Source of the DNA: Miltoncostaea oceani
GTDB lineage: Bacteria; Actinomycetota; Thermoleophilia; Miltoncostaeales; Miltoncostaeaceae
NCBI RefSeq assembly: GCF_018141545.1
Contig: NZ_CP064356.1
Span: 1,687,001 to 1,751,000, forward strand
Direction: 5' to 3'
Length of the DNA stretch: 64,000 bases
Shown: positions 5,508 to 49,232 of the stretch, piece after piece
Position numbering within the stretch: position 1 is the first letter of the stretch
How the letters are laid out: each line of letters starts with the position of its first letter
The notes under the pieces: generated by a model
What the model was told of the DNA's origin: nothing
The model's input: only the letters and a program-made list of their open reading frames with translations
The model's database searches: none
Translations under genes and position numbers: made by a program

Positions 5508-6776
5508 TCACCCCCGGTGGGCGGGCCACCGCCACCGGTGTCCGGTGACGGGCATGGCCTCCATCGCCGGGACCTCGCCCTCCGGGTGCGACCCGAACCA
5601 GCGGACGTAGCGCTCGGTCAGCGGACGGGACGACAGTCCGTGGGCGTAGACGGACAGCCCCACCGTCGCGACGACGGCGAGCAGGAGGGCCCGTTCGTGG
5701 GGGAGGTCGGCCTCGTCGAGGAGGATGACGGCGAACACGATCGACGCGAGCCCGCGGGGACCGGACCAGCCGAGGAAGGCGACGGTGGGGCGGCGCGCGC
5801 CCGTGCCGATCAGGGCGAGGGCGACCGGCACCATCCGGACGACGGTCAGGCTGACCACCGCGTAGAGGGCGTACCGCCAGGTCAGCTCGTCCGCCGCCGG
5901 GCCGAGGACGACCGCGCCGAACACGATGAACGTGACGGCGTCGAACAGCTCACCGCCCTCGTCCACGAGGGCGGTCACCTCCCCGGCGGCGTCCCGCCGC
6001 ACCGCCCCGAAGACGAGGCCCCCGGTGAACGCGGCGATGAAGATGCTGCCACCGAGTCCGAGTGCGATCCCGGCGGCGAGCAGCGCCGTGGTGGCGGTGA
6101 GGATCTGCAGCCACGCGCCGGAGATCCCGGGTGCGGCCGACCGGATCGCGAGCGCGCCGGCCACTCCCGCGACGACGCCGCCGATGAGCCCGTAGCCGAT
6201 CTGCTCCCCCACGAGTTGCAGGGCGCTGTGGCCGGATCGTGTGCCGGCTTCCGCCTCGGCGAGGGCGATCGCCATGAAGAACAGCGGGACGCAGAGGCCG
6301 TCGTTGAGGCCGCTCTCGACGTTGAGGCCCTGCCGGACGCGGGAGGGGACGCGTTCGTCGGTGACGACCGCCTGGCCGAGGGCGGCGTCGGTGCAGGCGA
6401 GAGCGACGGCGAGCACCAGCGACTCGGCGATGCCGAGCCCCGGGATGATCGCGACCCCGGCGAGCGCCCCCGCCGCGATGGTGAGGGGCAGGCCGACGCC
6501 GAGGAGCCGGAGCGGGATCCGGTGCTCCCTGCGCAGCGCGGTCAGCGAGATGCGGGACGCGTCGCCGAAGAGCACGAGCGTCAGGGTGATCTCGGCGAGC
6601 AGCTTCACCTCGTGGCTCCCGATCCCCAGGTCGAGGAGCCCCCAGGCGGAGGGGCCGACGACGACCCCGACGGCGGTGAAGAACATCGCGGCGGTGACGT
6701 TCCACCGTCCGAGGCGCGCCGAGACCGTCGCGTAGGCGATCAGCAGGACCGCGATGGTCGCGGGCGCCCAGCTCAC
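5508..6776 (-). CDS. Cation:proton antiporter, NhaP/CPA1 type
   Basis: A 422-residue membrane protein with about twelve hydrophobic segments from residue 6 to 395. The core block ESGLNDGLCVPLFF holds the N-D pair that carries the ion and proton in electroneutral CPA1 antiporters, and ACTDAALGQAV is the other half of the crossing helices. It most likely exchanges Na+ or K+ for H+ across the cytoplasmic membrane. It lacks the long cytoplasmic tail seen in many bacterial CPA1 proteins. A gap of 222 bases with no visible gene separates it from the frameshifted gene upstream, and 180 bases from the sulfatase downstream. Confidence 0.88.
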   Translation of the reverse strand: MSWAPATIAVLLIAYATVSARLGRWNVTAAMFFTAVGVVVGPSAWGLLDLGIGSHEVKLLAEITLTLVLFGDASRISLTALRREHRIPLRLLGVGLPLTIAAGALAGVAIIPGLGIAESLVLAVALACTDAALGQAVVTDERVPSRVRQGLNVESGLNDGLCVPLFFMAIALAEAEAGTRSGHSALQLVGEQIGYGLIGGVVAGVAGALAIRSAAPGISGAWLQILTATTALLAAGIALGLGGSIFIAAFTGGLVFGAVRRDAAGEVTALVDEGGELFDAVTFIVFGAVVLGPAADELTWRYALYAVVSLTVVRMVPVALALIGTGARRPTVAFLGWSGPRGLASIVFAVILLDEADLPHERALLLAVVATVGLSVYAHGLSSRPLTERYVRWFGSHPEGEVPAMEAMPVTGHRWRWPAHRG

Positions 6777-6998
6777 CGCCGGGGCCCCACCCGTGTCGGG
6801 CCGACGAACCGCGACATGCCGGCCTCCCGGAGCCGGGGGCGGCGGGGATCGCCGTCCCGGCGGTCACGATCCCAGGCCCATCGGCGGGGCCGCGTCCGCC
6901 AGATGGTGTGAACCCCCGGCCACGCGGCCGGACGTCGTGCGGACCACCGCGCCTGCTCCGGTCGTAGGACGGCACAGCCGATCGGCTGCGTCGGCTCC

Positions 6999-7914
6999 TC
7001 AGGCGGTCGCCGGTCGGCGCCGTCCCTCGGGCCGGGCCCGCGATTCCTCCATGAGGAGGACGGCCCCGGCGAGGAAGCACGCCGCTCCGAGGAAGGTGGT
7101 GGCGTTGGTCGCCTCGGCGTCGACCACCTCACCGGTCTCCGGGACGATGAACGACGTGACCGCCGAGATGCCGAAGAAGATCGACCCGAGCATGTTGATG
7201 CGGGCGATGCGGCGCCCGATGTCGCCGCCCGACCGGCACCGGCGCCGTGGCAGACCTCGAGGATGGCCAGGTAGCTCGCGATCAGGAAGCACGCGGATCC
7301 GATCGCGTCGGGCGCCCACACCCGCGCGATCTGCTGCGGGGTGTCCAGCGTGTCGTTCAACGCCGCGATGGTGGTGACGTTGAAGAAGACCGTGCCGATG
7401 AGCTGGACGAAGGTCACCCACCAGTCGAGACGCCGTGGCTCGGCGATCATGCGCCGGGCGTCCGGCCGGGTCGCCGGTGCCCCGGGGGCGACGGCCCGGG
7501 CGGCGCGGAGCGTCTGCAGGTGCTGCAGCGCCGCGGCGGAGGTGAAGAACGCGGCGCCGATCACGAACGTCACGCCCACCGCCCGGGGATCGAGTCGCGA
7601 GGCGACCGCCGGCAGCGAGGCGAGCGCGAAGCACGCCGAGCCGATCACGAAGAGCAGGCCGATCCACCATCCCATTCGGCGGATCGCGCCGGCGGTGTCC
7701 GACGGGACGGCGTCCGCTGCGGGGACGGCGTCGGAGAGCGGCCGCAACCCGAGCCCCATCCGGTGGCGACGTGACGTCCACTCGAGGCGCCCCCGGGCGC
7801 CGCCGTCGTACACGGCCCGCGAGACGAACGGCCCCCCCCGCCGCTCTCGACGATCCGCCAGTCCTCCGGATGTGTGACGAAGGGCGCGGCGACGCGGGCG
7901 GCCGCCCGCGTCAT
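6999..7914 (-). pseudogene. YrhK-like multi-pass membrane protein, two frameshifts
   Basis: A gene whose ATG overlaps the decarboxylase stop (ATGA), but which is spread over three frames. Frame 1 gives MTRAAARVAAPFVTHPEDWR then breaks near 7832-7839, a run of eight C. Frame 2 runs from FVSRAVYDGGARG through two helix pairs (MGWWIGLLFVIGSACFALAS, GVTFVIGAAFFTSAAALQHL, FVQLIGTVFFNVTTIAALND) to ILEVCHGAGAG. Frame 3 takes over near 7225-7240 with IARINMLGSIFFGISAVTSF and ends at 6999. Each break is repaired by adding one base, giving about 305 residues. Repeated short hydrophobic hairpins resemble the YrhK family. It may be a genuine pseudogene or carry two sequencing deletions in G/C runs. Confidence 0.7.
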
Positions 7915-9299
7915 GTGTGACTGAAGCCGCCGTCCCGGATGGATGACGGCCGGCGCTCGGGTTCCCGGGCGAACCGGTCGAGCACCTCCGCGACGTCGGC
8001 CAGCAGCAGGTCCGACAGGTCACGGCTGAGTCCGTGTCGCACCACGATCCGGCAGATCGCCATGTCCTCGAGGTTCGCCGGGAGCGTGTAGGCGGGCACC
8101 TGCCAGCCCGAGCGCCTCAGCGAATCCGAGAACTCGAAGAGCGTGAAGTTGGCATCGTCCTCCAGCGACCAGGAGAGGAGCGGTAGGTCCGTGCCCCGCG
8201 TGATCATCCGGAACGGCCCCATCCGCTCGAGCTCGTCGGCGAGGTGCAGGGCGACGTCCTGGGCCTCCTGCTGGATGCGCCCGTAGCCGGCGCGACCCAG
8301 GCGGAGGAAGTTGTAGTACTGCGCGACGACCTGGCTGCCGGGGCGGGAGAAGTTGATGGCGAACGTGGGCATCTCGCCACCGAGGTAGTTGACGCGGAAG
8401 ATGAGCTCCTCCGGCAGGTCCTCGGTGTCGCGCCAGACGATCCAGCCGACGCCGAGGGGCGCGAGGCCGTACTTGTGGCCCGAGGCGTTGATCGACTTCA
8501 CCCTCGGGAGCCGGAAGTCCCAGAGCAGGTCGCGCTGGATGAACGGCGCCACGAACCCGCCGCTCGCCGCGTCGACGTGGATCGGGATGTCGAGGCCCGT
8601 GTCGCGTTGCGGGGCGTCGAGAGCGTCGCTCATCGCGGCGATGGGCTCGTACTCGCCGGTGAAGGTCGAGCCGAGGACGCCCACGACCCCGATCGTGTTC
8701 TCGTCGCACTGCGCCACGGCGCCGGCCGCGTCCATCGCGTAACGCCCCTCCTCCAGCGGTACGAGGCGCTGCTCGACGTCCCAGTAGCGGGCGAACTTGT
8801 GCCAGCACACCTGGACGTTCACGCCCATGACGATGTTCGGCGCGTCGGCCGGCCGGCCGGCAGCCCGGCGGCGCTCGCGCCACCTGCGCTGCAGGGCCAT
8901 GCCCCCGAGCATGCACGCCTCACTCGACCCGGTCGTCGAGGTGCCGATGGCGTTCGTCGCGTCCGGGGAGTTCCAGAGGTCGGCGAGGATGTTGACGCAC
9001 CTCTGCTCGATCTCCGCGGTCTGCGGATACTCGTCCTTGTCGATCATGTTCTTGTCGCAGGTCTCGGCCATCAGCAGCCGTACCTCGGGATCGACCAGGG
9101 TCTGGGTGAAGGTCGCGAGGTTCAGGCGGGAGTTGCCCTCGACCATCAGCTCGTCGCTGATCAGCGCATGGGCGTGGCGCGGGTCCCACTCCCCTTCCGG
9201 GATGCGGTACTTCGGGACCTTCTGCGAGGAGTCGGACGAGGGGTAGAGGAGGCTGTGGGCCGCGGCCTCGTCGCTCGTCTTGACGCTGTGGACGGCCAT
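7911..9299 (-). CDS. gadB: Glutamate decarboxylase (PLP-dependent)
   Basis: A 462-residue group II decarboxylase that turns glutamate into GABA and CO2, using up one proton. Seen: HVDAASGGFVAPF with the PLP-binding aspartate, and SINASGHKYGLAPLG with the Schiff-base lysine at residue 276, the same number as in E. coli GadB. The N-terminal helix region and the last residues FSHT, with a penultimate histidine, also match the E. coli enzyme, where that histidine closes the active site at neutral pH. The start at MAVHSV follows GGGAGGAAC; an upstream in-frame start is less likely. No glutamate/GABA antiporter gene is present; the next gene downstream encodes a membrane protein of another type. 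Confidence 0.95.
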   Translation of the reverse strand: MAVHSVKTSDEAAAHSLLYPSSDSSQKVPKYRIPEGEWDPRHAHALISDELMVEGNSRLNLATFTQTLVDPEVRLLMAETCDKNMIDKDEYPQTAEIEQRCVNILADLWNSPDATNAIGTSTTGSSEACMLGGMALQRRWRERRRAAGRPADAPNIVMGVNVQVCWHKFARYWDVEQRLVPLEEGRYAMDAAGAVAQCDENTIGVVGVLGSTFTGEYEPIAAMSDALDAPQRDTGLDIPIHVDAASGGFVAPFIQRDLLWDFRLPRVKSINASGHKYGLAPLGVGWIVWRDTEDLPEELIFRVNYLGGEMPTFAINFSRPGSQVVAQYYNFLRLGRAGYGRIQQEAQDVALHLADELERMGPFRMITRGTDLPLLSWSLEDDANFTLFEFSDSLRRSGWQVPAYTLPANLEDMAICRIVVRHGLSRDLSDLLLADVAEVLDRFAREPERRPSSIRDGGFSHT

Positions 9300-9467: not shown

Positions 9468-10322
9468 CTACCCCGTGCCCCCTCCGCGCTCCGCGTCCGC
9501 GATCTCGGGGGTCGGCGACGGGACGCCCGGAGCGAGCCCCGCGTCCCCCAGGGCCTGCAGCTCCGGGATCGGCGGGGGCAGGGCGTGGCGTGCGCGCGCC
9601 GCGGCCCGCCGCCCCCGCCACTCCGAGGGATCCTCGAAATGGCGGCGCGCCGCGTCGAGGAGCTCCGGGCCGGGCTCGACCCCCGGCTCCACCCGCGGCG
9701 CGCCCGGGACGATCTCGGCGGGGTAGGGGATGCGCATCCCGAGCGCGGCCTCCGCGACGGGGATCGGGGGGATCGGCACGAGGTACGCCGCGCCGTCCCC
9801 GGCGTCACCGACCGCGAGGGAGGTGATCGCGTGCTCGTCCAGGTCGAGGTGGAGGTCCCGGACGGCGCCGACGGGCTCGCCGATGGAGTCGGTCACGGGG
9901 TGATCGAACGCGGCGGCGAGCGAGACGATCGACCGTGTGCCGGGCACGCGGGGCGCGTCGTCCACGAGGGCCCCGAGCCGGTCCAGGTCGGCGGTCGGGT
10001 CGCCACCGGCCCCGAGGTCGTGGTCGAGCCTGAGGGTCACGCGGGTCCGCTCCCTGCCCGTCCGCTCCAGGGTGAGGAGGCCGGTGTGGAGGGGTTCGCC
10101 CCGGGAGGTCCAGCCCACCGAGACGTCCGTCACGACCTCGGTGAGCACCGCGGGCCAGGTGCGCCCGTCCGCCGTCGTGAACGTGAGGGACGTCTCGTCC
10201 CGCCGCCGGACCGTCTCGACGCCTCGGAGGAACACCGGCCAGTTCGCCGGGTCCCGGATGACCGCGAACGCGCGGGCGGCGGGTGCGGCGACCTCGGTGG
10301 ACCGTTCGTGGAAGGTGATCAT
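9468..10322 (-). CDS. SRPBCC-domain protein fused to a PRC-barrel
   Basis: A 284-residue soluble protein. Residues 1-120 fit the SRPBCC (START-like) helix-grip fold typical of polyketide-cyclase/ligand-binding proteins: it starts ITFHERSTEVAAPAARAFAV, then RDPANWPVFLRGVETV. Residues about 150-205 fit a PRC-barrel: DSIGEPVGAVRDLHLDLDE followed by GAAYLVPIPPIPV. The C-terminal 60 residues are charged and probably loose. SRPBCC proteins bind hydrophobic ligands and PRC-barrels bind partner proteins, so an adaptor role is possible, but no specific function can be claimed. It is transcribed towards gadB, 168 bases away. Confidence 0.7.
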   Translation of the reverse strand: MITFHERSTEVAAPAARAFAVIRDPANWPVFLRGVETVRRRDETSLTFTTADGRTWPAVLTEVVTDVSVGWTSRGEPLHTGLLTLERTGRERTRVTLRLDHDLGAGGDPTADLDRLGALVDDAPRVPGTRSIVSLAAAFDHPVTDSIGEPVGAVRDLHLDLDEHAITSLAVGDAGDGAAYLVPIPPIPVAEAALGMRIPYPAEIVPGAPRVEPGVEPGPELLDAARRHFEDPSEWRGRRAAARARHALPPPIPELQALGDAGLAPGVPSPTPEIADAERGGGTG

Positions 10323-10517
10323 CCGACGAGTATCCGCGGCGACCCCCGGCGGGCGAAGGTGTCCGGGTCCGCCGGGGTCCGGTCACCCGCCACGCGGCGG
10401 GCGACGCGCGCGCACGGGTAACGGGGAGGCGGGGGGTCGCCGAGCGGGCCCGTCGGCTGCGAACAGTCCAGGTGCGGGCCTCGACGGCCGGGGGGCGGGC
10501 GCCCCGGCGCGGCCTCG

Positions 10518-10523
10518 TACGGT
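10518..10523 (+). promoter_or_regulatory. -10 box of the lysyl-oxidase-like gene
   Basis: TACGGT ends 6 bases before the ATG, which fits a leaderless transcript. The 207-base gap also serves the divergent SRPBCC gene; nothing else is recognisable in it. Confidence 0.4.
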
Positions 10524-10529
10524 CTCCCG

Positions 10530-12551
10530 ATGCCCTCCATCCGTCGCACCGCCACCGTCCTCGGCACCGTCGCGGGACTCGCCGCGGGCCTGCCCGCCGC
10601 CGCCACCGCCGCGCTCCCCGACCTGGTCTCCGAGCCCCCGGGGCCCGCCTACGTCGAGGAGTACCGCGACGGGCGCCTCCTGCTCCGCTTCGACGGCTTC
10701 GTCACCAACCGCGCCGGCGTCGGCCCCCTCGAGATCCGCGCGAGCGATCCCGACCCCGCCGGGCTGATGCGGAGCATCCGCCAGTTCCGCGACGTGACCT
10801 CGCCGGGCGTCGGCGGGTCCCCTGTGCCCGCCCCGGGTGGACGGGCGCCGACCGTCGTCTTCGAGGGGAACGACGACCACAATCACTTCCACCTCAAGGC
10901 GGCCGCCGAGTACACCCTGTGGACCGCCGACGGGCGGGCCCAGGTCGCGGTCGCGCAGAAGACCGAGGCGGGCTTCTGCATCGAGGACAGCGACCCGTCG
11001 GGCGGCGCGTACAGCGTCGGCACCCACAACTTCTGCTGGCAGGACCGCGACACCAACGGCCAGTCGACGCTGGTGATGGGGATCTCGTCGGGCTTCCGCG
11101 ACGTCTACACGTCCGGTCTCTCGTACCAGTGGATCGACATCTCCGACGTCCCCCCGGGCCGTTACCGCCTCGGCGCACGCGTCGACCCGGGCGACGTCCT
11201 CGCCGAGTCCGACGAGGCCAACAACGGATACGCCTTCCGGGACGCCGTCGTCCCTGGGCACCAGGCGCAGCCCGTCACCGTGGCGCGCTCCACCGGCGAC
11301 CCGGTGGAGGTCGACCTCCGCGCGGCGAGCTTCGGCGATTTCGGTTCGCGGCGGTACCGCATCGTCACGGCCCCCGCGCACGGGACCCTCGACCGCGCCG
11401 TCGGCGACGAGATCGCCGGATCCGTGGTCACGTACACCCCCGATCCGGGGTGGCGCGGCTCGGACGCGTTCACCTACGTCGCGGTCGACACGTCCAGCCG
11501 GTACCCGCGGACGCCGACCCCCGCCGTCGCGACCCTCGCGGGCGAGGACGTCCTCGTGACCGTCGGCGGGGGCCCCGCGCAGCTCGTCGCCGGGCTCGGC
11601 GCGCAGCTGACCGCGACGGTCGCGAACGGGTCCGGCGGCGTGACGTGGGCCGTCGACGGCGTCCGCGGCGGGTCGCCGGCCTCGGGCACGATCACCGCCG
11701 ACGGGTTGTACGTGGCGCCGTCCGCGCCGCCGCCCGGGGGCGCCGTCACGGTCCGCGCGACGAGCGTCGCCGACCCGGCCGCATGGGCGGAGATCGCGAT
11801 CCGCATCGTCGGCGCCCCCGCCGTCGCGGCCGCCCCCGCCGCGGCCTGCGTCGAGGTGCCGGCACGCCGGGAGTCGACGGGTGGGGGGACGGTCCGGCGG
11901 TCCGCCGCGCAGCTCCTCATCAACCAGCGCATCTCCCAGGCGGCCGTCCGGCGCGCGAACGCCATCGCGGCGTGGCTCGACGCCGGCGTCGAGGGGCGCG
12001 ACCTCTGCGGGGGCGCGATCGGCGCCCGCGAGCTCGGCCCCGGCGTCGTCTCCGGCCCGCCCGACCGCCCGAACGACCTGTCGGTCGCGTCGCCCCGCCC
12101 GCTCGTGGTGCCCCCGGCGTCGCGTCCGTCGGGCGGGCGCGTCACCCTGACCGGACGTCAGCTCCTGATCAACCAGCGGGTCTCCCAGGCCGCCATCCGC
12201 CGCCTCAACGGACTCCGGCAGCGGCTGGCGTCCGGGCTCACCGGGGGCGACCTCGCCCCGGGGACCGTCACCGCCGGGACCCTGGCGACCGACGTCCGCA
12301 TCCTCGCGGCGGACACCTCGATCGCCCGGCCCCCGGCGAGCCGGACGGTGATCGCGGCCCGCGTGGCCCCGGCCCGGGCGGCCGCCCTGCCGATCACCGC
12401 ACGGCAGTTCCGCACGAACCAGCGGATCGCGCAGGCGGCGGTCCGGCGCTCCAACGCCCTGGCCGACGAGCTGGCCGCGGGCCTCACGGGGCGTCACATC
12501 GCCGACGGCTCGGTGGTCGCGGTCAACCTCGCCCCCGCGCTCCGGCGGTGA
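10530..12551 (+). CDS. Secreted lysyl-oxidase-like protein with C-terminal repeats
   Basis: A 673-residue exported protein. Residues 1-28 are a signal peptide ending ATAALPD. Residues 30-245 match bacterial lysyl-oxidase-like domains: NDDHNHFHLKAAAEYTL has the copper-binding H-x-H-x-H at 117-121, and THNFCWQDRDT and YQWIDISDVPPGRYRL follow as in the family. Residues 275-325 look like a cadherin-like repeat (TYTPDPGWRGSDAFTYV), and 345-428 like a bacterial Ig fold. Then come three copies of a unit of about 50 residues at 457-505, 540-590 and 621-671, each beginning QLLINQRISQAAVRR or a close variant. Enzymatic oxidation of lysine is unproven for bacterial members. A hairpin terminator follows. 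Confidence 0.82.
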   Translation: MPSIRRTATVLGTVAGLAAGLPAAATAALPDLVSEPPGPAYVEEYRDGRLLLRFDGFVTNRAGVGPLEIRASDPDPAGLMRSIRQFRDVTSPGVGGSPVPAPGGRAPTVVFEGNDDHNHFHLKAAAEYTLWTADGRAQVAVAQKTEAGFCIEDSDPSGGAYSVGTHNFCWQDRDTNGQSTLVMGISSGFRDVYTSGLSYQWIDISDVPPGRYRLGARVDPGDVLAESDEANNGYAFRDAVVPGHQAQPVTVARSTGDPVEVDLRAASFGDFGSRRYRIVTAPAHGTLDRAVGDEIAGSVVTYTPDPGWRGSDAFTYVAVDTSSRYPRTPTPAVATLAGEDVLVTVGGGPAQLVAGLGAQLTATVANGSGGVTWAVDGVRGGSPASGTITADGLYVAPSAPPPGGAVTVRATSVADPAAWAEIAIRIVGAPAVAAAPAAACVEVPARRESTGGGTVRRSAAQLLINQRISQAAVRRANAIAAWLDAGVEGRDLCGGAIGARELGPGVVSGPPDRPNDLSVASPRPLVVPPASRPSGGRVTLTGRQLLINQRVSQAAIRRLNGLRQRLASGLTGGDLAPGTVTAGTLATDVRILAADTSIARPPASRTVIAARVAPARAAALPITARQFRTNQRIAQAAVRRSNALADELAAGLTGRHIADGSVVAVNLAPALRR

Positions 12552-12559
12552 CCACCCGG

Positions 12560-12593
12560 CCCACCCGTGCGGCGCCACACGCCGCCGGGTGGG
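12560..12593. terminator. Hairpin between convergent genes
   Basis: Arms CCCACCCG and CGGGTGGG outside, GCGGCG and CGCCGC inside, one unpaired T and a five-base loop CCACA. It lies 8 bases after the lysyl-oxidase-like stop and 33 bases from the DUF2254 stop, so it can end both transcripts. Confidence 0.65.
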
Positions 12594-12626
12594 ACGCCGT
12601 CCGCACCGGCCGGCGGCCCCGCGGCC

Positions 12627-13946
12627 TCAGGACGGCGCCAGCCGCGCCGCGGCGTGCTCGACGCGCTCCCGGTCGGCGGGATCCGGCAGGGCGCGGCGCG
12701 CGCCGTCGCGCACGGCGACGGCGCGGGCGCGGAGCGCCGCGAGCCGGTCGGGGCTCCGCGTCGCCGCGGCGACGCGGCCGAGGGCGTCGAGGAGGACGAG
12801 CATGGTCGCGGTGTCGGCCTGGGACTCGGCCGCGCGCACGTACTGGTCGAAGGCGACGCCGACCAGGTCCTCCCAGCCGGGCCGCGGCCGGACGACGACC
12901 GTCCGTCCGTCGTCGTCGACGAGCGCGACGCCCAGTCCGCGGTCGGCGACCCGGCGCAGCAGGTCCGCCGTCCGGAGGATCGCCTCCTCCGCCGTGGTCG
13001 GGTCGTTGACGCTCGGCGAGAGGGCCCGCAGGCCCACGTCCGTGAGCTGGCGGATGCCGAACGCGACGTCCTGGGTGGTCGTCCTCTGGGTGCCGAGCGC
13101 CACGGCGCCCGCCAACCGCTCGATCTGCTCCGCCGTGGGCGGGGCGCCGCCGTGCATCCGGACGACCGGCTCCCCCTCGGCGACGAAGTCGCCGGGCGCC
13201 GGTGCGACCTCGGCCGTCCCGCCCGTGGCCGTCGCCACCGCGGCGAGGGCCCGGTCATCCACCCAGCGCACCCTCCCGGTGCGCGTCGCCCGGACCTGCG
13301 CGACCAGCGGCAGGTCGTCCGGGACGGCCGCGCCGTCCCGCGGGGTGATCGACGCGTCCAGGGTCGCGTCGATCACCCCGCGCGTCTCCTCCCAGATGGC
13401 GTCGATGAGCCTCTCGACGCGTATCTCGGAGGCCATGTGGTGGAAGAAGGCGACGAGGAGGCCCAGGACGACGAAGCCGAGCAGGACCGCGACGTTGACG
13501 GTGATCCCGGGCACCTGGTCCTCGCGGACGAGGCGCAACGCGACGATCGCGAAGACGAAGGCCCCGACGAAGCCGCCGATCACCGCCTGGATGACGCGGT
13601 CGCGCATGAACCGGCGCATCGCCCGCGGCGAGTACCCCTGCGCCGTGAGCGCCAGCACCGCCAGGGTGATCGACAGCGTGACGCCGAGGACGGTCATCGT
13701 CGCCGTCGCGAGGGTCGAGAGGACGCTCCGCGCCGCGTCCGCGTTCCCGCTGAAGACCCAGAACGGACGGGCGTCCTCCTCGTCCAGCATCCGGTCGAAC
13801 CGCACCAGGGCCTCGGCCGCGACGGCGGCGAGCACGCCGAGGGCCATCGGCCAGAGCCAGAGGCGCTCGCGGAGCACGTCGAGCGAGCGCCCGAGTCGTC
13901 CCGGGGTCGCGGCGGGGCCGTGCCTGGTCGCGCTCGAGCGGCTCAT
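12627..13946 (-). CDS. DUF2254 membrane protein
   Basis: A 439-residue protein. Residues 25-170 contain four hydrophobic segments (WPMALGVLAAVAAEALVRF, TATMTVLGVTLSITLAVLAL, QAVIGGFVGAFVFAIVALRL, VNVAVLLGFVVLGLLVAFFH); the remainder is soluble. The motifs QGYSPRAMRRFMRDRV and FGIRQLTDVGLRALSPSVNDPTTAEEAI are diagnostic for DUF2254, a family of predicted membrane proteins with a cytoplasmic domain and no proven role. The start at MSRSSATRH was chosen because upstream in-frame residues lack hydrophobic or conserved character and cross the divergent promoter region shared with the ferritin-like gene. Confidence 0.85.
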   Translation of the reverse strand: MSRSSATRHGPAATPGRLGRSLDVLRERLWLWPMALGVLAAVAAEALVRFDRMLDEEDARPFWVFSGNADAARSVLSTLATATMTVLGVTLSITLAVLALTAQGYSPRAMRRFMRDRVIQAVIGGFVGAFVFAIVALRLVREDQVPGITVNVAVLLGFVVLGLLVAFFHHMASEIRVERLIDAIWEETRGVIDATLDASITPRDGAAVPDDLPLVAQVRATRTGRVRWVDDRALAAVATATGGTAEVAPAPGDFVAEGEPVVRMHGGAPPTAEQIERLAGAVALGTQRTTTQDVAFGIRQLTDVGLRALSPSVNDPTTAEEAILRTADLLRRVADRGLGVALVDDDGRTVVVRPRPGWEDLVGVAFDQYVRAAESQADTATMLVLLDALGRVAAATRSPDRLAALRARAVAVRDGARRALPDPADRERVEHAAARLAPS

Positions 13947-14113
13947 CGTGCTCCCCCGTGGTGGACGGCACGCCTCGCCGCGGACCGGCGGAAGGCTACG
14001 CGTCACCGGGCCGCGCACCCCGGTGGCGGGGAGCGCCGGGGCCCCGCGGGTTCGCGGGGAACCGCCGCATGATCCGCGCCGGGGCCGCGTGAGTAGCACC
14101 TGCGACCGATCAT

Positions 14114-14138
14114 GCGACCGCGCCCACGGCGCGGTCGT
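14114..14138 (+). promoter_or_regulatory. Hairpin in the leader of the ferritin-like gene
   Basis: CGACCGCGCC and GGCGCGGTCG pair over ten bases with the loop CAC, ending 17 bases before the ATG and just before the ribosome site GAGAGGA. It would form in the 5' untranslated leader. It may affect stability or translation; no known riboswitch is recognised. Confidence 0.35.
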
Positions 14139-14154
14139 CACCGAGAGGACGCAC

Positions 14155-14862
14155 ATGTCGGACAGAACGCTCGACCTCGACGCCGTCGACCGCGATGGGG
14201 CGATCGCCGAGGCCGCGCACGCGGTGGCCGCCGACCCGCAGCTGGAGGACGCCGCATCGCGCGGCGACACCCGCGCCCAGCTCCTGCGCAAGGCCGCCCT
14301 CGGCGGCAGCGCGCTGGTGGGTGGCGGCCTGCTGCTCGGCGGCCTCAGCGGCACGGCGCTCGGCGCCGACAGCCGTTCCGCCAAGCAGGACGTGGCGATC
14401 CTGAACTACGCCCTCACGCTCGAGTACCTCGAGGCCGAGTTCTACCGCCAGGCCGTCGCGGGGAACGCCCTGTCGGGCGACCTCAAGACGTTCGCGACGA
14501 CCGTCGCGGACCACGAGGCGGCCCACGTGGACTTCCTCCGCAAGGCCCTCGGCTCGGCGGCCGTGGCCTCCCCGACGTTCGACTTCAAGGGCATCCCGGG
14601 GAACGCCGACCGGTTCATCCGCACCGCCGTCGTCCTGGAGGACACGGGCGTCGCGGCGTACGCCGGGCAGAGCTACCGCATCAAGAAGACGGCCTACATC
14701 CTCGTCGCGGCGCAGGTTCTCGCCGTCGAGGCGCGCCACGCGGCGTGGGCGCGGACCTTCCTGCCAAACCGCCTGCCCGCGGAGGACGTCCTGAACGGCC
14801 ACGCGAACATGAAGCAGGTGCTGGACGTCGTCACGGCGACGGGCTTCATCACCTCCTCGTAG
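14155..14862 (+). CDS. Ferritin-like domain protein
   Basis: A 235-residue protein of the Ferritin_2 type. Residues 36-48 (DTRAQLLRKAALG) and the hydrophobic stretch 49-66 look like an export signal or anchor; the basic pair is interrupted, so it is not a textbook twin-arginine motif. The following four-helix bundle has the expected carboxylate/histidine pattern: LTLEYLEAEFYRQAV, TTVADHEAAHVDFLRKAL, RTAVVLEDTGVAAYAGQ and LAVEARHAAWARTFL. These would hold a di-metal site. Function is not known; related proteins are common in Thermoleophilia and have been called stress or dessication related. GAGAGGAC precedes the ATG. Confidence 0.8.
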   Translation: MSDRTLDLDAVDRDGAIAEAAHAVAADPQLEDAASRGDTRAQLLRKAALGGSALVGGGLLLGGLSGTALGADSRSAKQDVAILNYALTLEYLEAEFYRQAVAGNALSGDLKTFATTVADHEAAHVDFLRKALGSAAVASPTFDFKGIPGNADRFIRTAVVLEDTGVAAYAGQSYRIKKTAYILVAAQVLAVEARHAAWARTFLPNRLPAEDVLNGHANMKQVLDVVTATGFITSS

Positions 14863-15006
14863 GGGAGGTGCAGGTCGCCGGCGGTGCCTGCGGACCAGGT
14901 GACGTCGTCCGGAGGTCGCGCGCGCAACGGACTGCGCCGCGACCCGCGGGACCCACCGGACGTCGCCCGCAGGGACCGCCCGGCGGCCGGTGCACGGGCA
15001 CGTGCC

Positions 15007-15032
15007 GGGAGCCCCGCCGCGGCGGGGCTCCC
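15007..15032. terminator. Perfect palindromic hairpin
   Basis: A 26-base perfect palindrome with arms GGGAGCCCCGCCG and CGGCGGGGCTCCC. It stands between the ferritin-like gene and the minus-strand tRNA pair, 15 bases beyond the 3' end of tRNA-Glu, and could end transcripts from both sides. Confidence 0.6.
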
Positions 15033-15047
15033 GTCCTGCTCACCGAG

Positions 15048-15120
15048 TAGCGCATACGGGATTTGAACCCGTGTTACCGCCGTGAGAGGGCGGCGTCCTA
15101 GGCCCCTAGACGAATGCGCC
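15048..15120 (-). tRNA. tRNA-Glu (CTC)
   Basis: A 73-base cloverleaf on the minus strand: acceptor GGCGCAT paired with ATGCGCT (the first pair is G-U), D-arm GTCTAGGGGCCTAGGAC, anticodon stem CCGCC/GGCGG around loop CTCTCAC (anticodon CTC), T-arm ACGGG-TTCAAAT-CCCGT, discriminator A. No CCA is encoded. The D-arm and anticodon arm match other bacterial tRNA-Glu genes closely. Confidence 0.9.
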
Positions 15121-15151
15121 ACGGACCGGCACCGGACCATGGGGGAAGAAG

Positions 15152-15222
15152 CTGGGGGAGGAGGATTCGAACCCCCGCTACCGGGGCCAGAACCCGGCGT
15201 CCTACCGCTAGACGATCCCCCA
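15152..15222 (-). tRNA. tRNA-Gln (CTG)
   Basis: A 71-base cloverleaf on the minus strand: acceptor TGGGGGA with TCCCCCA, D-arm GTCTAGCGGTAGGAC, anticodon stem CCGGG/CCCGG around TTCTGGC (anticodon CTG), four-base variable loop, T-arm GGGGG-TTCGAAT-CCTCC with one G-U pair, discriminator G, no encoded CCA. It lies 31 bases upstream of tRNA-Glu and they are probably cotranscribed. Confidence 0.88.
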
Positions 15223-15266
15223 CCACGGGACGGGCCGACGCGATGGTACCAAACGGCCGGGGGTGC

Positions 15267-16151
15267 TCAACCCGCGGCGGAGCCCGCGACCGCGAGCGCA
15301 CCGCGGGGGCCGGCCATCGCCCCGAGGCCGGGGGCCTGCACGAACGCGGGGTCGGCGTGCTCCGGCAGGCCCGGGTACCCGCCGAGCGCCCGTCCGAGGT
15401 GGGCGCGCACGGCGGGGAGCAGGCCCGGGAGCGACGCGACGCCGCCGCCGATGAGGATCCGCTCCGGGGCGACGGTGTAGACGAGCGCCCGCAGCCCCTG
15501 CGCCAGGTAGTGGGCCTCCAGCTCCACGGCACGGTCGCGGGCGGGGCCCGCGAGGTCCTCCGCCGGTGCGCCCCAGCGCGCCGCGATCGCCGGACCCGCC
15601 GCCATCCCCTCCAGGCAGTCGCCGTGGAACGGGCAGACGCCGGGGAAGTCGTCACCCGGGGCCCGCGGCACCGCCACGTGGCCCGCCTCGGGGTGGACGA
15701 GGCCGTGCAGGGGACGCCCGCCGGCGACGACCCCCACGCCGACGCCGGTGCCGACGGTGACGTAGGCGAACGTCCCGAGACCCCGTGCGGCGCCCCACCG
15801 GCCCTCCGCGAGGGCGGCGCCCGTCACGTCCGTGTCGACCGCCACCGGCACCCCGAAGGCGTCGCGGAGGGGGCCGACGAGGTCGACGCCCGACCAGCCG
15901 GGCTTCGGGGTCGCGAGCAGCCGGCCGTGCCCCGGGCCGGGCCGAAGGTCGAGCGGGCCGAACGCCGCGACGCCGACGGCCTCCATCGGCCCCGCGTCGG
16001 CCGCCATCCCGCGCAGCGCCTCCACGGCGTCCGCCAGGGTCTCGGCGGGCCCGCGCGTCGGGAACCGGCGCTCGGCCAGGACCCGTCCCGCGCCGTCGCC
16101 GACCAGGCAGACGAACTTGGTGCCACCCGCCTCGACTCCCCCGAGGATCAC
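15267..16151 (-). CDS. ROK-family fructokinase
   Basis: A 294-residue sugar kinase. The phosphate-binding start GGVEAGGTKFVCLVGDG is the form typical of bacterial ROK fructokinases, and GHVAVPRAPGDD plus CPFHGDCLEG gives the ROK zinc-binding cluster. The catalytic aspartate is in VAVDTDVTGAALAEG. It would phosphorylate fructose to fructose 6-phosphate in the cytoplasm. The neighbouring divergent operon encodes GH32-like and GH68 enzymes, which release fructose from sucrose or fructans, supporting fructose rather than glucose as the substrate. GTG at 16151 is used as the start; only 48 bases separate it from the divergent gene. Confidence 0.88.
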   Translation of the reverse strand: MILGGVEAGGTKFVCLVGDGAGRVLAERRFPTRGPAETLADAVEALRGMAADAGPMEAVGVAAFGPLDLRPGPGHGRLLATPKPGWSGVDLVGPLRDAFGVPVAVDTDVTGAALAEGRWGAARGLGTFAYVTVGTGVGVGVVAGGRPLHGLVHPEAGHVAVPRAPGDDFPGVCPFHGDCLEGMAAGPAIAARWGAPAEDLAGPARDRAVELEAHYLAQGLRALVYTVAPERILIGGGVASLPGLLPAVRAHLGRALGGYPGLPEHADPAFVQAPGLGAMAGPRGALAVAGSAAG

Positions 16152-45486: not shown

Positions 45487-46866
45487 TCAGGCGGTGCCGG
45501 CCGGGTCGAGGGGGGTCGGTACCCACCGGAGGGCCGGGGGAGCGATGTCGCCATCACCGAACCCCATCCCCTCGTCAGCGAGCCGCTCCCTGGCGAACTC
45601 GGGCCCACCCTCCTCGCCGATCCAGCGGGGTGAGACCTGCCCGGTCGACCGCAGGACACGGTGGGCGTTCGGTATTGCCGGATCGGTTGCGATCACCCCG
45701 GCGACCGACTGGGCGGCTCCCGGCACTCCGATCGCCGCCGCCAGATCACCGTAGGTGGTCCACCGACCACGCGGTATCGCCGCGCACATGCGTCGTAGGG
45801 CGTCACGATCGATCCGCCTGCCCGGACCTCCGGCCTGCAGGATCCCGGCGTCGGCCGCCAGATCGCGAAGGCTCGTCTCTCCGTCGACGGTCCAGTAGAG
45901 CATCCCGTTGACGCCGTCACTCGAGACGTCGCCCTGGCGAACCCCGACCCTGTGGAGGACCGTCGCCGCCAGGAGGGACGGTGAGAGGAGGGCGGTCTCA
46001 CCCGTCTCCGGATCGGTCCACTCGAGCGTCCGCACGCCGTCGACCGTGGCGAGCGTCGCCCGGTAGAGGGGCTCCTCCTCGCTCCAGGCGGGGCCGCTCG
46101 CGGGTACGGCATCGCGGCGGAAGTAGAGCGTCTGGCCGAGCGCGAGCGCGTCGGCTTCGAGCAGTCGCGGGATCAGCCGTCCGGCCCGCGCTCGCTCCCC
46201 CTGATCGCGCACCGTCTCCTTGCGCTTTCGCAGCACGCCGAGTCGGTACTGCTCGGCTTCGGGGAGCGGGATGATCGTCTCCGAGTGGACGAGGATGCGC
46301 CCGCCGACCGCGAAGGGCTGGAGACGCACGCAGCGGATGTCCATCTCGTAGCTGTCCGCCAGCCAGAGGACGGTCGTCGTGACCTCCGGTCGGTAGTCCC
46401 CGGCGACGGGCACGATGCGGGGCGTGTCGTCGATGACGGGCGGTTCGTCCTCCGACCCGCCCAGGAGGTCGAGGAGGAAGGCCCGCGACGCGTCGGTGCC
46501 GAGGTCGTGATGTCGGGCGTGCATCTCGACCACGTCGTCGAACTGTGCGGCGGCGACGTACGCGGCGTACTTGATCGCCTGCAGGTCGACGGTCGTGCTG
46601 GTCCCGTCGCGCTTCAGCTCGACGACGACGAGGCGCCCGCGCCCCGGCTCGATCGCCGTGATGCCGAGCACATCGAGCCGCTCCGAGGTGCGATCGAATC
46701 GATCGAACTCGCTCGTCACCACGGCGAAGTCGCCGCCTGCGAGGGCTGGTGCGGACGTCACCCAGGCCTCGAGGTCCTGGCGTTCCCAGAGCTTGAGCTC
46801 CGGGAACGTGCTCGGGGCGACCTCTACGACCTCCCGCGACTCTGGATCGACCTCGAACAGTGGCAT
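45487..46866 (-). CDS. PD-(D/E)XK nuclease fused to a cysteine-less alkyltransferase-like domain
   Basis: A 459-residue protein with two DNA-related domains. Residues 25-120 match NucS/DUF91-type nucleases: ERLDVLGITAIEP (Asp65), LVVVELKRDGTS (Glu83, Lys85) and DLQAIKYAAYVAA (Gln96). Residues ~145-350 are unassigned. Residues 355-437 resemble the DNA-binding domain of O6-alkylguanine alkyltransferases: MCAAIPRGRWTTYGDLAAAI, and IPNAHRVLRSTGQV, where the family has P-C-H-R-V. Ala401 replaces the acceptor cysteine, and Gln386 stands at the usual arginine-finger position. It may recognise modified DNA and cut it. It stands alone, with a 105-base gap to the next gene upstream. Confidence 0.75.
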   Translation of the reverse strand: MPLFEVDPESREVVEVAPSTFPELKLWERQDLEAWVTSAPALAGGDFAVVTSEFDRFDRTSERLDVLGITAIEPGRGRLVVVELKRDGTSTTVDLQAIKYAAYVAAAQFDDVVEMHARHHDLGTDASRAFLLDLLGGSEDEPPVIDDTPRIVPVAGDYRPEVTTTVLWLADSYEMDIRCVRLQPFAVGGRILVHSETIIPLPEAEQYRLGVLRKRKETVRDQGERARAGRLIPRLLEADALALGQTLYFRRDAVPASGPAWSEEEPLYRATLATVDGVRTLEWTDPETGETALLSPSLLAATVLHRVGVRQGDVSSDGVNGMLYWTVDGETSLRDLAADAGILQAGGPGRRIDRDALRRMCAAIPRGRWTTYGDLAAAIGVPGAAQSVAGVIATDPAIPNAHRVLRSTGQVSPRWIGEEGGPEFARERLADEGMGFGDGDIAPPALRWVPTPLDPAGTA

Positions 46867-46971: not shown

Positions 46972-49092
46972 CTACCAGCCGGCCGGGGCGGGACGCTTCT
47001 TGGGACCCGGCCCGAGCGGTCCCCAGAACGGACCGGGGAACCGCTTGGTGCCCTCGGAGGTCTCGGATCCCCAGCTCCCGCCGAATCCGTACCACGGCGC
47101 CTTCGTCGCCTCCCGGAAGCCTCCCGCCCCCTTCTGCCACGTCTCCCAGGTGACCCCCCCGCCCGGGTGGCTGTCGCCGACGCCCTTCGTGACCCAGGGC
47201 GGACAGGAGATACGGGTCGACCTGCGCGGGACGTGGTAGCTCGCATGGGCGCCCTTCGCCACGTACACCCGCGGGTGCGACCTGCCGGCGATGGCCCCGT
47301 CCCGGCGCATCTTGGCCCACGAGTGGACGTCCGCGTCGCACAGGTGCTGCCAGTAGCCGGCCGCGACCGCCTGGTTGCGCGTGTCGAGCCGCACGGCGAT
47401 CCGCTCCCAATCGCCCTCGTGCACGTCCTTGACTCCCGCCAGCTTCACGTAGTTGCGTGCGGAGAAGAACCAGTAGGTGATGTACCGGCGGGGGACGTAC
47501 TGGACGTACATGACGGGGGCGTTCGGATAGGTGCCCCCGCTCTCGTCGGGCGGCGTGCGACCCTTCCATGCGTCGTTGTCGAGGTTGAGGTAGAAGCCCC
47601 ACCGGCCATTGTCCGCGGTGACCTTCGCCTTGTTCTTCGTCTCGGCGGGAGCGGTCAGCTGCCGTGTGGTGAGCGTCACCCGGCGCCCCGGCGCCTGGGC
47701 GCCGCGACGGACGAGCCCCGAGCAGTAGCGGTAGCGATACCTGCCGTCCGGCAGCCACGACGAGATGATCTTCCCGCGGCCGACGATGCGAGCGTCCTTC
47801 GTCGGGCACCCCCGGCCGTGCGCGCCGTTGGGGTTGGCGAAGTCGAGGGAGGAGCGCCGGACGAACTCGCTCGGATCCATCGGCCAGTGGCGCTCGCGGG
47901 GATGGAACTGGACCCACGGTGCGTAGGAGGGGATCGGGTCGAAGACCGCGGTCACGGTGACATCGCCCTCCGCGGTGAACCGGCACGTGCCGACCGGCCC
48001 GTACGTGACGGGGCCCGGGCAGTCGCGGAAGCCGACGAAGCCGCCCTTCGGCTCGTCCGCGACGGCCCGCACCGTCACCTCGTCGCCCGCGGTGACGACT
48101 TCGGCGCACTCCGAGGCGCACTCCGCGTCGCCCGGCCGGATCTCCACCACCCCCGGACCGTCGACGTCCGCGGTGACGCGGGCCCGGGCGCGCGGATCCC
48201 GCGTGTCACCGATGGTGAGATCGGGCTGGGAACCCGGGAAGAGCGTCCGGACATCGCCGCCGCCGGCCGGGATGTAGCGGACGTCGCCGTCGGCCGCGTA
48301 GACGACGTCGCCGCGGGGGCCCACCGCCACCCGCGAGAGGCTGGTGGCGCTGTCCCTGACGACGCCATCGACGACGAGCTCGCGGTCGGCCGTCGGCTCC
48401 GTGACGCAGTACCCGCCGCTGGCGGGCTCCAGTGCGTTGCGGACGTACGCGAACACCCCGCCGCTCCTCTGCCCGCTGGAGAAGGCGGTGAGCGGTTCGG
48501 CGAGGATCTCCGTGACGACGCCGGTCAAGGTGACGCCGGCGAGCCGGTACGACACGCAGAGGTCGTCGTAGCCACCGCGGTCCACGCGGCAGAACGGCGC
48601 CCCCTCCCCACGACTGAAGATGATCTCCTCCCCGTCGTCCGACCATCTCGGGAAGCGGTTGCCGCTGGTCAACGTCTGCGCGTCGGTGGTCAGCTTGCGG
48701 CGCCCGGAGCCGTCGGGGCCGGAGACGTAGATGTCCGTCACCCCCGACGAGCTCACGGTGAAGGCGATGTCATCGGTCACGGGCGAGAAGTCGGGCGACT
48801 GTCCTCCCGGGACCGACGTGACCCCCCCGGTCGTGCGGTCGAGGACCGAGATGCCGGCGACACCCGTCCCCCAGGCGACGAACCGTCCGGTGCGGGAGAC
48901 CGTCGGGTTCGTCTCGCATGCGGGGCTCCCGGTCAGGTTCTGTGGAGCCTCCCCGGTGAGGGGTGCGATCCATATGTCGCAGCCGTCCGCGAACACGACA
49001 CGGGTGGCGGGGTCGTCCGCCGCCAGCGACGGGGCCGCGGCAGCGAGGAGCGCCATGGTGGCGACGAGAAGACCAGCGAGACGGTGGTGCAC
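46972..49092 (-). CDS. Secreted beta-propeller protein with a Vps62-like domain
   Basis: A 706-residue exported protein. The GTG at 49092 follows GGAGGGG and gives a clean signal peptide (HRLAGLLVATMALLAAAAPS); longer in-frame starts lack this. Residues 30-290 look like a TolB/WD40-type propeller (GRFVAWGTGVAGISVLDRTT, FPRWSDDGEEIIFSRGEG). Residues ~310-390 resemble a bacterial repeat domain with four cysteines. From ~395 the sequence WVQFHPRERHWPMDPSEFVR, YWFFSARNYVKLAG, VHEGDWERIAVRLDTR and VAKGAHASYHVPRR matches the Vps62 family, whose role in bacteria is unknown. It reads convergently with no partner gene. By eye it is somewhat less GC-rich than its flanks. Confidence 0.68.
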   Translation of the reverse strand: MHHRLAGLLVATMALLAAAAPSLAADDPATRVVFADGCDIWIAPLTGEAPQNLTGSPACETNPTVSRTGRFVAWGTGVAGISVLDRTTGGVTSVPGGQSPDFSPVTDDIAFTVSSSGVTDIYVSGPDGSGRRKLTTDAQTLTSGNRFPRWSDDGEEIIFSRGEGAPFCRVDRGGYDDLCVSYRLAGVTLTGVVTEILAEPLTAFSSGQRSGGVFAYVRNALEPASGGYCVTEPTADRELVVDGVVRDSATSLSRVAVGPRGDVVYAADGDVRYIPAGGGDVRTLFPGSQPDLTIGDTRDPRARARVTADVDGPGVVEIRPGDAECASECAEVVTAGDEVTVRAVADEPKGGFVGFRDCPGPVTYGPVGTCRFTAEGDVTVTAVFDPIPSYAPWVQFHPRERHWPMDPSEFVRRSSLDFANPNGAHGRGCPTKDARIVGRGKIISSWLPDGRYRYRYCSGLVRRGAQAPGRRVTLTTRQLTAPAETKNKAKVTADNGRWGFYLNLDNDAWKGRTPPDESGGTYPNAPVMYVQYVPRRYITYWFFSARNYVKLAGVKDVHEGDWERIAVRLDTRNQAVAAGYWQHLCDADVHSWAKMRRDGAIAGRSHPRVYVAKGAHASYHVPRRSTRISCPPWVTKGVGDSHPGGGVTWETWQKGAGGFREATKAPWYGFGGSWGSETSEGTKRFPGPFWGPLGPGPKKRPAPAGW

Positions 49093-49232
49093 TGCCCCTC
49101 CAGGTGGATTCGCCGGAAGGTACGTCCCGCTCGTGCGCATCGTCGCTGGTCTTTCGGCCAGTTCCCGCGGAGCGACACCGTCGGGCGTGGCCACCCCGGT
49201 AGGTTGGACGCCCCCGACCGGAGGCCCCCCAC

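What the first reader, a model, noticed from the sequence alone, without database searches (positions are those of the whole stretch)
45487..46866. Nuclease-alkyltransferase-like fusion lacking the acceptor cysteine
Seen: Asp65, Glu83-x-Lys85 and Gln96 of a NucS-like PD-(D/E)XK domain in one chain with an MGMT-type domain where P-C-H-R-V reads N-A-H-R-V and the arginine finger is Gln. Known: alkyltransferase-like proteins without the cysteine flag alkylated guanine for repair; NucS cuts mismatched DNA. Inference: a single protein that recognises altered bases and cuts nearby, either for repair or as a type IV-like restriction enzyme against modified phage DNA. The ~200-residue middle region is unassigned. 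I do not know of a description of this architecture.
Basis: partly seen in the sequence, partly recalled or inferred. Interest (0 to 1): 0.75.

Follow-up and report, generated by a model that had tools for sequence, protein, structure and literature searches.

The report
Predicted modified-DNA-cutting nuclease with repair-protein reader
A bacterial protein joins a DNA-cutting domain to two domains that probably inspect DNA bases, one of them a relative of DNA-repair proteins that has lost its repair cysteine; relatives lie among anti-phage genes, so it probably cuts chemically modified phage DNA.

Summary
The 459-aa ORF at 45487-46866 (-) has a NucS-like PD-(D/E)XK domain (D65, E83-x-K85 and Q96 invariant in 10 relatives) and a C-terminal ATL/MGMT domain (Pfam PF01035, E 1.1e-12) with Ala401 in place of the acceptor Cys and Gln386 in place of the Arg finger. 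Three further details emerged. (1) Residues 1-224 match PDC-S11, a PADLOC 'phage defence candidate' family (E 3.6e-58). (2) The unassigned middle is a divergent RAMA domain (profile-profile P 4.8e-8; shuffled controls no better than 0.05). (3) The nuclease-ATL link recurs in three other genomes of the class. One of these genes sits inside a type I restriction operon, overlapping the end of hsdM. Another is the first ORF after a tRNA-Glu, near a resolvase and an integrase. Unrelated GmrSD-type IV nucleases carry the same RAMA-ATL tandem at their C-termini. Best reading: a single-chain, modification-dependent (type IV-like) restriction nuclease that uses a non-catalytic ATL domain as a modified-base reader. 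Repair of O6-alkylguanine is less likely. ATL domains on GmrSD were noted in 2015. I found no description of this nuclease-RAMA-ATL combination. Substrate and cleavage are untested.

The parts
45487..46866 (-). whole ORF, 459 aa: PDC-S11/NucS-like nuclease + RAMA-like + ATL-like domain
46231..46866 (-). nuclease module, residues 1-212 (PDC-S11; NucS-like PD-(D/E)XK core about 28-105)
   Evidence: PADLOC PDC-S11 residues 1-224 E 3.6e-58; hhalign to NucS P 2.9e-8; AlphaFold2 pLDDT 81.9 for residues 1-215
46672..46674 (-). Asp65, predicted metal ligand
   Evidence: invariant in 10 relatives; aligns with the NucS Asp
46612..46620 (-). Glu83-x-Lys85, predicted catalytic motif
   Evidence: invariant in 10 relatives; aligns with NucS E-x-K
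46579..46581 (-). Gln96, predicted active-site residue
   Evidence: invariant in 10 relatives
45832..46218 (-). divergent RAMA-like domain, residues about 217-345
   Evidence: homologous to the same region of other PDC-S11 members (E 1.6e-8) and to AIPR C-termini; hhalign to 19 RAMA domains P 4.8e-8, best of 60 shuffles 0.05
45502..45807 (-). ATL-like (MGMT C-terminal) domain, residues 354-455
   Evidence: PF01035 E 1.1e-12; Atl1 by sequence and by fold
45655..45669 (-). N400-A401-H402-R403-V404, acceptor Cys replaced by Ala
45709..45711 (-). Gln386 at the Arg-finger position

Best explanation
A single-chain, modification-dependent restriction nuclease. SHOWN by sequence: a PDC-S11 nuclease module with intact PD-(D/E)XK residues, a divergent RAMA domain, and an ATL domain without acceptor Cys or Arg finger, in one chain; the nuclease-ATL link recurs; relatives are embedded in restriction operons or mobile islands; unrelated GmrSD nucleases carry the same RAMA-ATL tail. 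INFERRED: the RAMA domain holds the DNA backbone, the ATL domain probes or flips a modified base into its enlarged cysteine-free pocket, and this licenses the NucS-like domain to cut the invading DNA. The host's own bases do not fit the pocket, so no partner methyltransferase is needed. The target modification is unknown.
For: PDC-S11 match over the whole nuclease module; PDC families were found by guilt-by-embedding (PMC10855318). Catalytic residues kept. Three other nuclease-ATL fusions. In G183 the order on one strand is HsdR, HsdS, HsdM, fusion, methyltransferase/ATPase, with the fusion start overlapping the end of hsdM. In Conexibacter sp. S30A1 the fusion follows tRNA-Glu and is followed by a resolvase and a tyrosine integrase. 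In L049 a PDC-M32A candidate lies 2.1 kb away. A DUF4268-type PDC-S11 relative lies between hsdS and a helicase gene in a Roseomonas plasmid. GmrSD_N/C + RAMA + PF01035 in L031 and L034, and PF01035, DUF4357 and DUF4268 reported on GmrSD (PMC4619093); all three kinds of partner also occur on PDC-S11 nucleases. Sporadic distribution: no nuclease match in the three other genomes searched of the same genus.
Against: In this window no defence gene was recognised near it: among ten ORFs put to PADLOC (nine from the window) only a generic ATPase-like match turned up; the upstream neighbours are type IV pilus genes, by my reading of the sequence. No PDC-S11 protein, to my knowledge, has been tested against phage. 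RAMA domains in CcrM and MPND bind DNA without proven modification preference (PMC9963953). The nuclease model found no significant solved-structure match. The fused ATL domains lack the Arg finger, so base flipping may not be their mode.
Confidence: 0.62

Rival explanations
1. A DNA-repair enzyme: the ATL domain recognises O6-alkylguanine and the NucS-like nuclease cuts beside the lesion, as one chain in place of ATL-recruited nucleotide excision repair.
For: Known ATLs bind O6-alkylguanine and recruit NER, and fusions of AGT or ATL with endonuclease V exist in archaea (PMC10779285). The window ATL groups with the stand-alone ATL of the same genome (93/82). No known defence gene was recognised beside it here.
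Against: The genome already has a stand-alone ATL (L002), a Cys-bearing MGMT (L003) and NucS. Other fusions sit in a restriction operon or island. The Arg finger is lost in all fused ATL domains inspected. A RAMA domain is not expected of a repair enzyme. Distribution is sporadic.
Confidence: 0.17
2. A defence nuclease whose ATL and RAMA domains are merely generic double-stranded DNA grips or sense something other than a modified base (a DNA end, a replication intermediate, a companion R-M complex).
For: RAMA in CcrM and MPND contacts the DNA backbone without base specificity (PMC9963953). The PDC-S11 partner is often DUF4268 or another domain of unknown role. PDC-S11 genes inside type I R-M operons could assist them.
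Against: The repeated choice of base-inspecting modules, and the same RAMA-ATL order on GmrSD, whose characterised members are modification-dependent (PMC4619093), point to base reading. The fusion also occurs without an R-M operon (window, L047).
Confidence: 0.16
3. Chance fusion or annotation artefact (two genes read as one, or a degraded relic).
For: High-GC DNA gives many long spurious frames; the ORF has a lower third-position GC (0.87) than the pilus genes (0.98-1.00).
Against: Both ends are conserved, catalytic residues are intact, and nuclease-ATL fusions recur in three other genomes in single open frames.
Confidence: 0.03

Closest known systems
PDC-S11 (PADLOC-DB v2 phage defence candidate; DUF91/NucS-like + DUF4268 and other C-termini)
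   Same: Nuclease module over its full length (residues 1-224, E 3.6e-58); the same type I R-M embedding in some members.
   Different: The C-terminal half is RAMA-like + ATL, not DUF4268; the PADLOC models match only the first about 220 residues.
GmrSD type IV restriction enzymes with PF01035 (Machnicka et al. 2015, PMC4619093)
   Same: Same C-terminal RAMA-ATL tandem in L031 and L034; Cys-less ATL.
   Different: Unrelated nuclease (DUF262/DUF1524) instead of PD-(D/E)XK; fused ATL domains form their own clade (100/96).
Alkyltransferase-like proteins (S. pombe Atl1, E. coli and Vibrio ATL)
   Same: Fold and sequence of the MGMT C-terminal domain, no acceptor Cys; Tyr372 kept.
   Different: Arg finger replaced by Gln; Ala, not Trp, at the Cys position; part of a nuclease chain.
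NucS (EndoMS)
   Same: PD-(D/E)XK core and catalytic residues.
   Different: Lacks the NucS N-terminal domain; has PDC-S11, RAMA-like and ATL regions; the genome encodes a separate NucS.
AGT/ATL-endonuclease V fusions of archaea (PMC10779285)
   Same: Principle of a base-reading MGMT-type domain linked to a nuclease.
   Different: Different nuclease fold, different context (defence, not repair).
Winged-helix and RAMA fusion endonucleases (PMC11037411)
   Same: Reader domain + nuclease in one chain; RAMA-Mrr and GIY-YIG-RAMA fusions were noted there.
   Different: Reader is wH (6mA) in the tested enzymes; no MGMT-type domain is mentioned in that paper.

Membership tests
PDC-S11 | Significant match to the family's PADLOC profiles | tested here: met
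   E 3.6e-58 but only profile positions 1-220 of 347; so a member by its nuclease half
PDC-S11 | Gene embedded in another defence system | tested here: inconclusive
   Met for the G183 fusion and Roseomonas relative; not seen around the window gene
PD-(D/E)XK nuclease, NucS-like | D...(D/E)xK...Q catalytic residues conserved | tested here: met
   D65, E83, K85, Q96 invariant; aligned with NucS
PD-(D/E)XK nuclease, NucS-like | Fold match to solved NucS or other PD-(D/E)XK enzymes | tested here: inconclusive
   No match at E <= 0.001, although the order of strands and helices in the model fits
NucS/EndoMS mismatch endonuclease | NucS N-terminal domain and full-length equivalog score | tested here: not met
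   12.7 bits against a cut-off of 216
ATL (alkyltransferase-like) | MGMT C-terminal fold without acceptor Cys | tested here: met
ATL (alkyltransferase-like) | Arg finger for nucleotide flipping | tested here: not met
   Gln386 at that column
ATL (alkyltransferase-like) | Binding of O6-alkylguanine DNA | not testable with these tools
   needs protein
RAMA domain | Match over the Pfam cut-off | tested here: not met
   no Pfam match
RAMA domain | Profile-profile similarity over the whole domain | tested here: met
   P 4.8e-8 over 82 columns, controls 0.05 or worse
Type IV (modification-dependent) restriction enzyme | Cuts modified and spares plain DNA | not testable with these tools
   needs assay
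Type IV (modification-dependent) restriction enzyme | Nuclease plus reader in a stand-alone gene without its own methyltransferase | tested here: inconclusive
   No methyltransferase among nine window ORFs given to PADLOC; the G183 relative does lie beside hsdM

The most novel reading that the evidence does not exclude
A new class of modification-dependent restriction nucleases in which a non-catalytic alkyltransferase-like domain, paired with a RAMA domain, has been recruited as a sensor of bulky or otherwise modified bases in phage DNA, in parallel on PD-(D/E)XK (PDC-S11) and GmrSD nucleases.
Probability: 0.35. Interest if true: 0.78.

Novelty: new variant of a known kind. Interest (0 to 1): 0.6.

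Why it matters
If true, a DNA-repair reader that everyone links to alkylation damage has a second career as an immune sensor for modified viral DNA, acquired by at least two unrelated nuclease scaffolds. It would give the untested PDC-S11 candidates a concrete mechanism to test, explain the PF01035 domains left unexplained on GmrSD enzymes since 2015, and supply new tools that cut DNA at particular modified bases.

Tried and rejected
First genome-contig scan with the single protein found no relative; an alignment of four fusions was needed. A Pfam scan of the middle region gave nothing; the first hhalign with 7 x 3 sequences gave only P 7e-4 and was not accepted until larger alignments and shuffled controls were made. 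Foldseek of the nuclease-only model gave only poor matches (acetyl-CoA carboxylase, TM about 0.26), rejected as meaningless. A single origin of the fusion was considered: the tree needs three changes for the PDC-S11 label but does not exclude one origin. Long frames around ATL hits in high-GC DNA (for example L002, L007) were rejected as fusions because the upstream frame has no recognisable domain. A repeat of the tRNA-Glu end in L047 was sought and not found within 20.9 kb, so the island border there is unproven.

Full report
OBSERVATION. The ORF 45487-46866 (-) encodes 459 residues from an ATG. The C-terminal domain matches Pfam PF01035 at 359-433 with E 1.1e-12, over its cut-off, and S. 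pombe Atl1 and a Vibrio ATL in the PDB. Its Cys position is Ala401 (N-A-H-R-V) and its Arg-finger position is Gln386; the flipping Tyr (Y372) is kept.

NUCLEASE. Residues 1-224 match the PADLOC family PDC-S11 at E 3.6e-58. PDC families are phage defence candidates found by guilt-by-embedding, i.e. as genes lodged inside other defence systems (PMC10855318; PMC12255303). The NucS resemblance is weak from the single sequence (E 0.011) but two relatives pass the Pfam NucS_C cut-off (L018, L046), and hhalign of the ten-sequence nuclease alignment with two NucS proteins of the same genome gives P 2.9e-8 (best of 40 column shuffles 0.07), with D65, E83-x-K85 and Q96 opposite the NucS catalytic residues. 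An AlphaFold2 model of residues 1-215 (pLDDT 81.9) shows helix-strand-strand-strand-helix order that fits PD-(D/E)XK, but Foldseek found no significant solved match, so the fold is supported by sequence, not by structure comparison.

MIDDLE. It is about 130 residues. It is homologous to the same region of other PDC-S11 members (profile of the others against the window: E 1.6e-8) and to the C-termini of AIPR (PF10592) proteins. No Pfam model hits it directly. Eleven such sequences against nineteen RAMA domains give hhalign P 4.8e-8 over 82 collinear columns; the best of 60 column shuffles gives 0.05, the reversed alignment 0.073, and the result holds without the window protein (5.6e-7). One sequence (L114) is hit by both families. 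I therefore call it a divergent RAMA domain. RAMA is often called a 6mA reader, but MPND and CcrM structures show backbone contacts without proven preference for 6mA (PMC9963953).

THE LINK RECURS. Three other nuclease-ATL fusions were found in the class, all without the RAMA-like middle: G183 (L023), G146 = Conexibacter sp. S30A1 NZ_CP097127.1 (L024/L047), G385 = Actinomycetota MAG WLOB01000012.1 (L026/L049). None of the 396 further phylum genomes sampled gave another. Other PDC-S11 members carry the RAMA-like domain without ATL (L025, L027, L004, L057), DUF4268 (L048, L051, L053) or other tails. So the nuclease is a scaffold with exchangeable C-terminal modules.

THE SAME TAIL ON AN UNRELATED NUCLEASE. 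L031 and L034 contain GmrSD_N, GmrSD_C, RAMA and DNA_binding_1 in one frame; L033 contains GmrSD_N, GmrSD_C and DNA_binding_1. L030 and L070 have the same look by sequence. Machnicka et al. 2015 (PMC4619093) had reported DUF4268, DUF4357 and DNA_binding_1 as extra domains of GmrSD type IV enzymes, mainly in Streptomyces for the last. The same partners therefore serve two unrelated nucleases, in the same order (RAMA then ATL).

ATL TREE. In a tree of 47 domains, 26 Cys-less domains of the 'G-x-W ... A-H-R-V' kind are separated from the others (99/97); the GmrSD-fused domains form one clade (100/96); the four PDC-S11-fused domains do not, and the window's ATL pairs with the stand-alone ATL of its own genome (93/82). 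Several fusion events are likely; one origin is not excluded. None of the PDC-S11- or GmrSD-fused ATL domains that I inspected has Arg at the finger column, whereas the genome's own stand-alone ATL (L002) does (by inspection).

CONTEXT. In G183 (L125) one strand carries, in order, HsdR (12989-15790), an HsdS frame (11682-13295), HsdM (10132-11775), the fusion (start about 10129, overlapping the end of hsdM; last codon 9116) and a methyltransferase/ATPase protein with NsnB, HEC-03B and PDC-M55A matches (6342-9116) (the HsdS assignment is by my reading of the sequence). In Conexibacter the fusion (9923-10960) is the first ORF after a tRNA-Glu (9490-9562), followed by a resolvase-domain protein and a tyrosine integrase. 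In L049 a PDC-M32A candidate (E 5e-60) lies nearby. A DUF4268-type relative lies between hsdS and a DEAD/DEAH helicase gene in a Roseomonas plasmid, and 340 plasmid records hold nuclease relatives. Around the window gene itself I found no defence gene. Its third-position GC (0.87) is below that of the pilus genes (0.98-1.00), and near that of its other neighbour (0.91), a weak hint of foreign origin.

MECHANISM. Shown: domain content, intact catalytic residues, recurrent link, defence and mobile contexts of relatives. Inferred: the chain binds DNA through RAMA and ATL, the ATL pocket, freed of its cysteine and Arg finger, accepts a modified base, and the NucS-like domain then cuts. The absence of an associated methyltransferase around the window gene is what one expects of a type IV enzyme, as argued for the winged-helix fusions (PMC11037411). 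The substrate is not known; O6-alkylguanine is not excluded.

REPAIR ALTERNATIVE. AGT- and ATL-endonuclease V fusions in archaea act in repair (PMC10779285). Here the genome already has a stand-alone ATL, a Cys-bearing MGMT and a NucS, and relatives of the fusion are in restriction operons or islands. I give repair 0.17.

LIMITS. No activity data; sampling of genomes, not a census; heuristics of the first look may miss fusions; papers searched are open-licence only, so 'not described' means not found there.

Noticed in passing
L125 3668-15790: G183 operon HsdR-HsdS-HsdM-fusion-methyltransferase/ATPase, with a recombinase-like ORF at 3668-4324: a composite defence locus.
   Followed up: partly
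L119-L122: AIPR (abortive infection) proteins end in the same RAMA-like domain as the window protein; Pfam does not annotate it there.
   Followed up: partly
L036 1444-2181 and L071 1462-2154: A separate family: possible HTH region followed by a Cys-less ATL domain (N-P-H-R-V / S-P-H-R-V); one strongly supported clade (100/98).
   Followed up: no
L074 760-1836: DUF429 domain fused to an MGMT-type domain with Ser at the Cys position (P-S-H-R-L).
   Followed up: no
L124 (G000 contig C2, 30420-30758): A second NucS-like protein on a smaller contig of the same genome, besides the chromosomal NucS L123.
   Followed up: no
L114 1286-1780: SeqA_N-like segment (below cut-off) followed by a RAMA-like domain that bridges RAMA and the window's middle domain.
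   Followed up: partly
NZ_CP108689.1 63647-63958: Streptomyces plasmid DUF262 protein with an ATL-like region (37.7% identity to residues 350-453).
   Followed up: no
window 46972-49194 (-): Next gene: 740-aa protein with a weak PD40 beta-propeller match and no defence match; function not pursued.
   Followed up: no
L046 9995-11473: Gemmatimonadetes PDC-S11 protein with a longer C-terminal half that also matches the tail of PDC-S11 model PDLC04916: yet another tail combination.
   Followed up: no
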